Shown one piece after another: positions 23,806 through 25,728 of a stretch of DNA of 55,260 bases. This DNA comes from Acidobacteriota bacterium (lineage in GTDB: Bacteria; Acidobacteriota; Blastocatellia; UBA7656): positions 1 to 55,260 of the forward strand of contig JBBPIG010000034.1 of assembly GCA_038040445.1 (NCBI GenBank). The letters run 5' to 3'. A model generated the notes under the pieces. The model saw only the letters and a list, made by a program, of their open reading frames with translations. It made no database searches and was not told the origin of the DNA. Position 1 is the stretch's first letter; every line of letters begins with the position of its first letter. A program made the translations under genes and the position numbers.

Positions 23806-23873
23806 TGCAGTAGTCAAGGAGGTGGCCTGTGCTCGACGAAAGCGGGGGCAAGCCGCCTTCCCGACCTAATATG

Positions 23874-23926
23874 AAAGGGGCGCCCCTTTGGTGATATTTT
23901 GAGTTTGTTTTAAGCAGCTCAAAAAG
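23874..23926. repeat. Palindromes at the IS left end
   Basis: AAAGGGGCGCCCCTTT (23874-23889) is a perfect 16-bp palindrome overlapping the left inverted repeat. A second stem TTTTGAG/CTCAAAA lies just before the transposase ribosome site. They may be transposase or regulatory sites. Confidence 0.6.
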
Positions 23927-23946
23927 TTCACGCGAAGGAGAGCCCC

Positions 23947-25029
23947 ATGAACAAAGACAAGTATGTAGGACTGGACACGGATCAGGCAACCATCATCGGC
24001 AGGGTTGATGATGCTAAGGGAAACTTCGTAATGGAATCGGCCATCGAAACCAGCGCAAGTAGTATCCGGCAGTTCTTCAAAGGTCTGGACGGTACTATTC
24101 ACGTCGCGTTTGAAGAAGGTACTCAGGCTGCGTGGTTGTATGACGTCATCCGGCCGCTGGTTGCCGAGGTCACAGTCTGTGATCCGCGGCGCAACAAACT
24201 GATTCAGTCAGGGAACAAGGCGGACAGAATCGACGCTGCGAAGCTGGCGAGACTGCTGAGGCTGGGCGAGCTGCATGCGGTCTATCACGGCGAGCGAGGC
24301 ACACACGGGTTAAAGGAACTGGTTCACGGGTACGAGAGCTTGGTAGCCGACACGACGCGGACAAAGAATCGATTGAAGGCAGTCTTTCGAAGCCAGGCGA
24401 TTCGTTGCCGAGGTCAGTTGGTTTACAGCAAGCAGGAGCGCAAGCAGTGGCTCGGCAAACTGGACACGGCGGCGCTGGGCGCACGAGCTTCAGGTTTGTA
24501 CGAACAATACGACTGTCTCACAAAGCTGCGAGACAAGGCACACAAAGCGATGACCACCGAAGCGCTCAGACATCCAGCCTACAAGCGGCTAAAGAAAGTG
24601 TCCGGTTTGGGAGAGGTGAGGACGGCGCAGATCATAGCGGTGGTGAGCTCGCCACACCGGTTCCGCACCAAGCGGCAGTTCTGGCCTTACTGCGGGCTTG
24701 CGGTGGTAACTCACAACAGCAGTGAGTATGAGATCGTAGATGGCCAGCGGCGAAGAAAACGCAACAAGCAGGCTCAGACTCGAGGATTGAATCAGAACTA
24801 CAACAGGACATTGAAAGCTGTGTTCAAGGGAGCAGCGGCTACTGCGATCGAGCGGCCGCCGTTCAAGCAATATCGCCAGAGGCTGATCGACAAAGGGATA
24901 AGGCCTGAGCTGGCGCTGCTGACGGTGGCGCGCAAGATAGCCGCGATAACGTTGACGATCTGGAAGAAGGGAGAGGAGTTCGATCCTGAAAGAGTGAATC
25001 AAGCGGTACCAGGCACAGGCAAAGAGTGA
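23947..25029 (+). CDS. IS110-family transposase (DEDD + serine type)
   Basis: 360 residues. N-terminal RuvC-like DEDD domain: Asp10 (VGLDTDQATI), Glu56/57 (VAFEEGTQAAWL), Asp93 and Asp96 (KADRIDAAKLARLL). Then a coiled middle, and the C-terminal Transposase_20 region with LKKVSGLGEVRTAQIIAVV, FWPYCGLAVVTHNSSEYEIVDG (Ser258/259 lies where the family has its catalytic serine) and a basic RRKRNKQ stretch. In this family a structured bridge RNA encoded in the element's non-coding end guides site choice. GGAGAG lies ahead of ATG 23947. The frame looks intact, so the element may be active. Only one copy is in the window. Confidence 0.93.
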   Translation: MNKDKYVGLDTDQATIIGRVDDAKGNFVMESAIETSASSIRQFFKGLDGTIHVAFEEGTQAAWLYDVIRPLVAEVTVCDPRRNKLIQSGNKADRIDAAKLARLLRLGELHAVYHGERGTHGLKELVHGYESLVADTTRTKNRLKAVFRSQAIRCRGQLVYSKQERKQWLGKLDTAALGARASGLYEQYDCLTKLRDKAHKAMTTEALRHPAYKRLKKVSGLGEVRTAQIIAVVSSPHRFRTKRQFWPYCGLAVVTHNSSEYEIVDGQRRRKRNKQAQTRGLNQNYNRTLKAVFKGAAATAIERPPFKQYRQRLIDKGIRPELALLTVARKIAAITLTIWKKGEEFDPERVNQAVPGTGKE

Positions 25030-25329
25030 TCTGTCGGAAGCCTTACACGCAACCGCAGTCGCCACTTTACCTGAGCAAGGGTCGAGGGAGAGTATCAAAT
25101 CACAGGTTGTGCCCGAAGCGCTCACAGCTTCAAGCACCAATCCCGACTGCATGCCCCCTCGCACTAACCAGATAAAAGCTGTAGCCCGCGAGGCTCAGAT
25201 AGAACTGTGGTTGGCAACAGACCAACCGAAACTGCTTGATAAGGACTCAGGATAAGGAACGACGCAGTTGCGATTGTGATGGAAGGCGGAGGATCAGACA
25301 CCGGGTGTAAGTTCGGGCTACGAGCGGGG

Positions 25330-25468
25330 AAGCTGTGGAAACTGCCGCGATGTGGGAGCAGTGGAAAAATTCAACTACAACGACAATTTTTCCACTGCTC
25401 CCACATCGCTTGGGAAACTCTCCGCAAGAAACAAAAGCGCGGAGAGTTTCCCACAGTTCCCACAGCTT
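25330..25468. repeat. Nested palindromes forming a three-way junction
   Basis: Outer arms 25330-25344 and 25454-25468 pair over 15 bp with one mismatch. Enclosed are a perfect 25-bp hairpin (25347-25371 / 25385-25409, 13-nt loop) and a perfect 14-bp hairpin (25412-25425 / 25439-25452). The three stems follow each other with 1-2 nt between them, giving a compact branched fold as RNA or a cruciform as DNA. Confidence 0.9.
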
Positions 25469-25469
25469 C

Positions 25470-25646
25470 GGCGGCTGGGTTTAATCTCGGAAGAGAAACC
25501 AGTGAGCGGAGCCGTAACCTGCTGCGTGAGGTAGCCCGGAACCTGTCTTGGGAAGCTCATGGTGAATCGGGAACGTGGCTGGCTGGCAAGAAAATGCAAT
25601 CCCAGCCGGCTAGGGGAAAGTTTTTCCTTGACAGCCCCCTTTCATA
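25470..25646 (+). ncRNA. Candidate bridge RNA region at the IS right end
   Basis: Non-coding region between the branched palindrome and the right inverted repeat. It has a stem GCTGGCTGG/CCAGCCGGC near 25577-25613 and the segment CCCGGAACCTGT at 25535-25546. The reconstructed pre-insertion site reads CCCGACCTGT, and GAACCTGT also occurs exactly at the right junction (25647-25654). In IS1111-type elements the bridge RNA lies 3' of the transposase. The assignment is inference; RNA ends are not known. Confidence 0.35.
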
Positions 25647-25651
25647 GAACC

Positions 25652-25728
25652 TGTGATCCTGCGAACGGTACCTTGAGTTCCAGGTTGTTGAAAAGGATCA
25701 CGGGTCGGGAAGGATGGCTTGCCCCCGC
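25652..25728. repeat. Right part of the REP-like hairpin interrupted by the IS
   Basis: AGGATCACGGGTCGGGAAGG onward (25694-25728) is the complete right arm. Its complement is split: 25652-25660 (TGTGATCCT) and 23842-23866 left of the IS. Joined, the arms match over about 34 bp with one substitution and one small indel. Same family as 2846-2962. Confidence 0.85.

What the first reader, a model, noticed from the sequence alone, without database searches (positions are those of the whole stretch)
23842..25728. IS110-like element inserted inside one arm of a REP-like hairpin
The left arm (23842-23866) ends CCCGACC and resumes as TGTGATCCT at 25652; the intact opposite arm at 25694-25728 shows what the uninterrupted sequence should be. 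ACCT stands at both junctions, matching a CT-type core. A related intact hairpin exists at 2846-2962. IS110/IS1111 elements such as IS621 are known to target REP sequences through a bridge RNA, so this gives an internally proven target site for a new element.
Basis: partly seen in the sequence, partly recalled or inferred. Interest (0 to 1): 0.75.

Follow-up and report, generated by a model that had tools for sequence, protein, structure and literature searches.

The report
RNA-guided jumping gene inside repeated hairpin
A mobile DNA element has landed exactly inside one arm of a hairpin repeat that occurs dozens of times in this bacterium's genome, and a predicted guide RNA in the element matches both sides of that landing site; this is a clear new case of a way of jumping that is already known.

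Summary
A DEDD (IS110-type) element, 23867-25651, splits a repeat arm after CCCGACC, which resumes as TGTGATCC at 25652; ACCT stands at both junctions. The unbroken 14-mer TTCCCGACCTGTGA occurs 14 times elsewhere in the genome, each time on a repeat arm, and an intact paralogue has the same arrangement. The comparison hairpin at 2846-2962 is another sub-type of the repeat, not an empty site.

The roughly 620-nt region behind the transposase gene holds a predicted seekRNA/bridge RNA (about 25080-25225). Its two guide slots read ATCACAGG (complement of the right half-site) and TCCCGAC (copy of the left half-site), in the order published for IS1111. In related elements with other targets the same slots match those targets (permutations 1 and 2 of 720). 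Two of nine right-hand guides fail (L071; L133 without a G-U pair).

It works like an IS1111-type, REP-targeting element, but departs from IS1111 norms in extension length, a C-terminal motif and protein length. I file it only in the IS110/IS1111 DEDD superfamily: a new member of a known kind. In passing: a branched palindrome in its non-coding end has sequence relatives beside unrelated mobile elements.

The parts
23842..23866 (+). Left part of the interrupted repeat arm (left half-site ends TTCCCGACC)
   Evidence: 13-nt perfect inverted match to 25716-25728 (I5)
25652..25660 (+). Continuation of the interrupted arm (TGTGATCCT, right half-site)
   Evidence: same continuation at 14 exact empty sites
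25694..25728 (-). Intact opposite arm of the hairpin (TTCCCGACCCGTGATCC, one base off the target)
23867..25651 (+). Whole IS110/IS1111-type element; ends ambiguous by the shared ACCT
23870..23880 (+). Left subterminal inverted repeat TATGAAAGGGG (11 bp)
   Evidence: direct reading; conserved in relatives
25636..25646 (+). Right subterminal inverted repeat CCCCTTTCATA (11 bp)
   Evidence: direct reading; conserved in relatives
23947..25029 (+). DEDD transposase gene, 360 aa (DEDD_Tnp_IS110 plus Transposase_20)
25030..25651 (+). Long 3' non-coding region
25080..25225 (+). Predicted seekRNA/bridge RNA (conserved block GAGTATC...AGATAGAAC at 25090-25205)
25099..25106 (+). [quoted passage not shown]
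25141..25147 (+). Guide B, TCCCGAC: same as the top strand of the left half-site, so pairs with the bottom strand
25628..25633 (+). TTGACA, putative -35 of the promoter that a circle junction would form (18 nt to TAATAT)
23867..23872 (+). TAATAT, putative -10 of the circle-junction promoter
25329..25469 (+). Three-way-junction palindrome lying between the guide RNA and the right end; probably an added passenger

Best explanation
It is an IS1111-like element of the IS110 DEDD superfamily. A short RNA read from its non-coding 3' region programs the transposase to insert at the edge of one sub-type of a REP-like repeat arm. [quoted passage not shown] strand exchange lies somewhere in the shared ACCT. 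The circular form would join TTGACA of the right end to TAATAT of the left end and so make a promoter for the gene and the RNA. Shown here: the anatomy, the exact junction, the empty sites, and guide slots that track targets among relatives. Inferred: transcription and processing of the RNA, base pairing, the circle, catalysis, and orientation preference.
For: DEDD_Tnp_IS110 and Transposase_20 domains, both over cut-off. Precise junction and 14 exact empty sites, all on repeat arms, against 39 versus 2 for pattern and control; intact paralogue. Conserved 3' RNA block in 11 of 11 aligned elements, consensus fold with 8 of 23 pairs changed on both sides. Own guide-flank runs average 7.1 against 3.9 (T, 9 elements) and 7.1 against 4.4 (B, 10 elements) for other elements' flanks; for six distinct targets 1 of 720 and 2 of 720 permutations reach the own total. 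Two further flanks in G052 match the L072 T slot by 8 and 7. The order of the guides is the one reported for IS1111 (PMC11187229).
Against: Only one full copy of this element, so its own specificity rests on n = 1. T slot fails in L071 (4; decayed element with a split frame) and in L133 (4 unless a G-U pair is allowed). B runs are only 5 in L069, L072 and L135 and 6 in L071. Taken over the whole 3' region without knowing the slots, the window's two runs are reached by 63 and 275 of 2000 shuffled flanks. At least 14 perfect sites are empty, so activity is low or arrival recent. Extension length and the C-terminal motif differ from published IS1111. Donor guides were not identified.
Confidence: 0.88

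Rival explanations
1. The transposase itself recognises the folded or palindromic repeat (structure-guided insertion), and the RNA matches are incidental.
For: The target is a hairpin arm and the opposite arm differs from it by one base.
Against: Insertion lies at one sub-type of the arm, and the guide slots spell the half-sites of that sub-type across its edge; relatives with the same ends have flanks that share no common hairpin with this one and match their own slots.
Confidence: 0.06
2. Chance insertion of an element with loose targeting into an abundant repeat.
For: Single full copy; the truncated relative at C44 has a non-REP left flank.
Against: Both guide slots match this very site. 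Within one group of relatives flanks recur: TTGCAACGC on the left in 4 of 5 copies with a left flank (TTGTAACGC in the fifth), CACTACC on the right in 3 of 5 with a right flank, L076 (CACTGCC) and L133 (CACAGCC) being the others.
Confidence: 0.04
3. The flanking arms are part of the element (a composite or carried repeat) and not its target.
For: The hairpin arms bracket the element almost symmetrically.
Against: The same arms occur dozens of times without the element, an intact paralogue without the element has the same layout, and the ends shared with relatives stop inside the arm.
Confidence: 0.02

Closest known systems
ISPa11 (IS1111 family; REP of Pseudomonas aeruginosa; PMC11187229, parts read)
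   Same: 3' non-coding region with a guide RNA; top-strand guide before bottom-strand guide; insertion at a fixed place in a REP
   Different: Unrelated repeat sequence and host phylum; extensions sum to 8 bp here; different C-terminal motif. I did not have the ISPa11 sequence to compare.
ISPpu9/ISPpu10, ISPsy8, ISRm19/ISRm22 (REP-specific elements listed in the abstract of PMC1525189)
   Same: Specific insertion into REP sequences
   Different: Other repeats and hosts; only the abstracts of PMC1525189 and PMC8450116 were seen; no sequence comparison made
ISKpn4 / ISPst6 (IS1111 family, attC sites; PMC11187229)
   Same: Layout and order of guides; relative L069 has a left flank (TCTAAC) that looks attC-like to me (recalled motif, not tested)
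   Different: The window element targets a repeat arm, not attC
IS621 (IS110 group, bridge RNA; PMC11208160, PMC11208158, passages and one section read)
   Same: DEDD plus serine recombinase (weak sequence match 8wt6, E 3.3e-5, residues 207-352); two-part guide; promoter at the circle junction
   Different: In IS621 the RNA is in the left end and the guide order is reversed; here the RNA is behind the gene and there is an 11-bp subterminal repeat

Membership tests
IS110/IS1111 DEDD transposase superfamily | RuvC-like DEDD domain plus Transposase_20 domain | tested here: met
   PF01548 55.6 bits (cut-off 29) and PF02371 39.7 bits (cut-off 21.3); NCBIfam transpos_IS110 128.5 bits, below its cut-off of 140
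IS110/IS1111 DEDD transposase superfamily | DEDD residues and catalytic serine | tested here: inconclusive
   D10, E56, D93 invariant and D96 kept in all but L073; S258 aligns with the IS621 catalytic serine, Thr in L134. Mapping of D10 and E56 is my inference; activity not testable
IS1111 family | Subterminal inverted repeats of 11-13 bp | tested here: met
   11-bp perfect TATGAAAGGGG / CCCCTTTCATA
IS1111 family | Long non-coding region downstream of tnp | tested here: met
   About 620 nt downstream against 80 nt upstream
IS1111 family | Guide RNA with top-strand complement 5' of bottom-strand match | tested here: met
   T at 25099, B at 25141; sequence prediction only
IS1111 family | Terminal extensions of 7 (or 6) bp left and 3 bp right | tested here: not met
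   The two extensions sum to 8 bp here (5+3 if the right one is 3), from the empty site; norm from PMC11187229
IS1111 family | GL-P----S(T)G motif | tested here: not met
   GLAVVTHNSS; P and G replaced, serine position kept; GLAV(V/R/T)T in the nine full relatives with GLA or GFA; norm
IS1111 family | Transposase of 330-350 aa | tested here: not met
   360 aa; norm
REP / BIME repeats | Short palindromic repeat, many copies, often in inverted pairs | tested here: met
   68 arms, many in inverted pairs; extragenic position not tested
REP / BIME repeats | Association with a RAYT (Y1_Tnp) gene | tested here: not met
   No arm in the loci fetched around 7 of 7 Y1_Tnp matches; a distant RAYT is not excluded

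The most novel reading that the evidence does not exclude
The branched palindrome in the element's non-coding end is a module that is passed between unrelated mobile elements. Sequence relatives lie beside an IS21 IstB gene, ISNCY-like and other DDE transposase frames and a group II intron maturase, and a different branched palindrome in the relative L069 has its only other copy in that genome just behind an IS3-like transposase frame. If so, unrelated mobile elements share a common 3' cassette, perhaps a hitch-hiker or a block to transcription.
Probability: 0.3. Interest if true: 0.55.

Novelty: new member of a known kind. Interest (0 to 1): 0.36.

Why it matters
It gives an anchored target site and a readable guide for an IS1111-like clade in what appears to be Blastocatellia (Acidobacteriota), with six distinct targets, the window's included, among near relatives. 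That is a natural reprogramming series in which guide positions can be read off by comparison, and a set of orthologues for RNA-guided insertion tools. It also shows an element that can tell apart two sub-types of one repeat family through its guide. It changes no accepted mechanism.

Tried and rejected
Rfam: no family reached its gathering score; 6 of the 7 matches listed were microRNA models on the long palindrome and one an sRNA model, all below cut-off, which I take as noise. By eye I first considered another guide pair (GGATCA near 25291 and GTTCGGG near 25310) and dropped it: both would pair with the same strand and they lie outside the block conserved in relatives; no separate test was run. 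CCCGA near 25111 was replaced by TCCCGAC at 25141, which sits in the conserved B slot. The hairpin at 2846-2962 was rejected as an empty site (wrong sub-type). An alignment of four branched palindromes was poor, so I built no covariance model and claim no covariation for them. I ran no structure prediction. Paper searches listed no paper that I could recognise as describing this element, this repeat family or the branched palindrome in Acidobacteriota; these were listings, capped, in an open-access library, and ISfinder is not available here.

Full report
WHAT IS THERE. The window is the whole of contig C34 (55,260 bases) of a 6.75-Mb genome in 72 contigs. A genome of the same family (G006) has a contig of the same length as a record titled Blastocatellia bacterium (L064 and G006:C105), so I take the host to be a member of Blastocatellia; this is inference. 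The element at 23867-25651 encodes one 360-aa protein (23947-25029) with the two domains of IS110-type transposases, both over their cut-offs. The NCBIfam IS110 model scores 128.5 bits against a cut-off of 140, and the TIGR-Tas model 69.3 against 100, so the clade lies off the centre of the IS110 model. S258 aligns with the catalytic serine of IS621; the acidic positions D10, E56, D93 and D96 are kept in the family, except D96 in L073, but their mapping on IS621 is my inference.

THE JUNCTION. The arm GCGGGGGCAAGCCGCCTTCCCGACC is cut and resumes as TGTGATCCT. The arm pattern has 68 matches with at most two mismatches in the genome and none for the reversed control. In the 30 loci fetched, arms continue after CCCGACC mostly in two ways: GCGAGCTTGAG and close variants, or TGTGATCC; a few go on otherwise. 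The second is the site of this insertion. TTCCCGACCTGTGA is found 39 times with at most one mismatch (14 exact) against 2 for the control. Of the 39, 30 were fetched. All 14 exact ones follow an arm; among the other 16, two (L119, L121) clearly do not and three (L111, L112, L114) follow a degenerate arm or none. The 102-nt joined flanks align to the intact paralogue at C6:53172-53273 with no gap at the junction.

THE GUIDE RNA. Relatives were collected from 147 near genomes by DNA (13 with a match, own included), from 162 genomes of the class by protein (10 with E at most 1e-60, own included) and from named contigs (3 loci). They share near-identical subterminal repeats and right ends where these are present. 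The 3' regions of 11 elements align: GAGTATC, a variable slot, a variable loop, a second variable slot just before TATGCC, then AGATAGAAC. The consensus fold has 23 pairs, 8 of them with a change on both sides in at least one element. The window's stretch folds better than shuffles (z -2.6; 2 of 200 shuffles as good). The first slot matches the complement of the right flank and the second copies the left flank. Longest exact runs (T, B): window 8, 7; L069 8, 5; L070 8, 9; L071 4, 6; L072 9, 5 (only 5 left-flank bases exist on that contig); L134 8, 9; L133 4, 8; L135 7, 5; L075 8, no left flank; L073 no right flank, 8; L132 no right flank, 9. So 7 of 9 T slots reach 7 or more; the failures are L071, whose transposase frame is split, and L133, which matches further only with a G-U pair. 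For B, 6 of 10 reach 7 or more. Against other elements' flanks the means are 3.9 (T) and 4.4 (B). With six distinct targets, 1 of 720 (T) and 2 of 720 (B) permutations reach the own total. Elements or fragments without a guide region or a flank in the stretches held were not scored: L002, L065, L074, L076, L077, L079, L080, L081, L136; L078 was a chance match. The two flanks of L074 were set against the slot of L072, from the same genome, and match by 8 and 7. The matches of the window element alone against its whole 3' region would be weak (63 and 275 of 2000 shuffles); the strength lies in the homologous slots.

HOW IT WORKS, IN ALL LIKELIHOOD. As described for IS1111 elements in PMC11187229 (outline, parts 1-3 of 9 and section 13 read), a short RNA from the 3' region binds the transposase and matches both strands of the target, the top-strand complement first. 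The window element has that order. The right end carries TTGACA and the left end TAATAT; joined in a circle they would be 18 nt apart, and a promoter at the circle junction is described for both families. RNA, circle and insertion chemistry were not observed. The paralogous arms differ in what follows CCCGACC, so the guides would pick the TGTGATCC sub-type and pass over the GCGAGC sub-type; this is inference from sequence.

WHERE IT DEPARTS. According to PMC11187229, IS1111 elements have extensions of 7 and 3 bp (or 6 and 3), a GL-P----S(T)G motif and transposases of 330-350 aa. Here the extensions sum to 8 bp, the motif reads GLAVVTHNSS and the protein has 360 aa. I therefore say that it works like an IS1111 element and belongs to the DEDD superfamily, without formally filing it in IS1111. 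REP targeting by such elements is long known (PMC1525189, abstract; ISPa11 in PMC11187229).

HOST REPEAT. The arm pattern with at most one mismatch is found in 6 of 58 near genomes, own included: own 61 matches, G001 (the one other genome of the genus among the 58) 33, G006 of the same family 45, and, from another family, G053 83, G008 4 and G016 1; none in the reversed control. No arm lies in the loci fetched around the 7 Y1_Tnp matches of the genome, so 'REP-like' is the fair word.

THE PASSENGER. From the 3' end of the guide block to the right end, 7 of 9 elements have 192-206 nt, while the window has 444 and L069 has 356. The excess in the window includes a three-way-junction palindrome (25329-25469; -102.8 kcal/mol over 25315-25485, z -13.5) that is single-copy in this genome. 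Sequence relatives occur about 40 nt behind the IstB gene of an IS21 element (L036), inside the 3' end of open transposase frames with HTH and rve domains (L042 and L052; the frame of L043, otherwise alike, is broken; 'ISNCY-like' is recalled), about 370 nt behind a group II intron maturase frame (L138) and just before a DDE transposase frame (L139); L145 lies some 850 nt from an integrase-like frame. In one search, 7 of 395 other genomes had a match at E at most 1e-3; six of the nine matches there (L140-L144, L146) are short and partial, and I do not count them, though L140 and L142 also lie beside IstB genes. The palindrome of L069 is a different sequence; its only other match in that genome (75% identical, L148) lies right behind a frame that I recognise as IS3-like from memory. 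I did not test this association against random expectation, and a search seeded from transposable elements is biased towards such neighbours only, not.

Noticed in passing
25329-25469; L036:1494-1626; L042:1501-1621; L043:1503-1625; L052:1502-1624; L138 and L139 from 1501: A strongly folding three-way-junction palindrome inside the element's non-coding end has sequence relatives beside an IS21 IstB gene, other DDE transposase frames and a group II intron maturase in other genomes of the phylum.
   Followed up: partly
L069:1248-1360 and L148 from 1501 (genome G003): A different branched palindrome sits at the same place in the non-coding end of the relative L069; its only other match in that genome (75%) lies right behind an IS3-like transposase frame.
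   Followed up: partly
L074:1888-2003 (G052:C648): Two right ends of the relative's element stand back to back as a short inverted pair, with guide-matched flanks (GCTATA) on both outer sides: possibly a miniature derivative with two right ends.
   Followed up: no
genome G000, arms listed: The REP-like family has two main continuations after CCCGACC (GCGAGCTTGAG and TGTGATCC); the family is patchy: also in G001, G006, G053 and rarely G008 and G016, absent from the other 52 of 58 near genomes.
   Followed up: partly
L002 (G000:C44:1769-2271): A truncated relative (62% identical protein) in the same genome keeps its left end at a non-REP flank (...TCTTCACAC) and is cut off in the transposase gene by unrelated sequence.
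   Followed up: no
L134 and L073 transposases (alignment A3): In L134 the position of the catalytic serine is a threonine, and in L073 the fourth acidic residue (D96) is a valine, which may mean loss of activity in L073.
   Followed up: no
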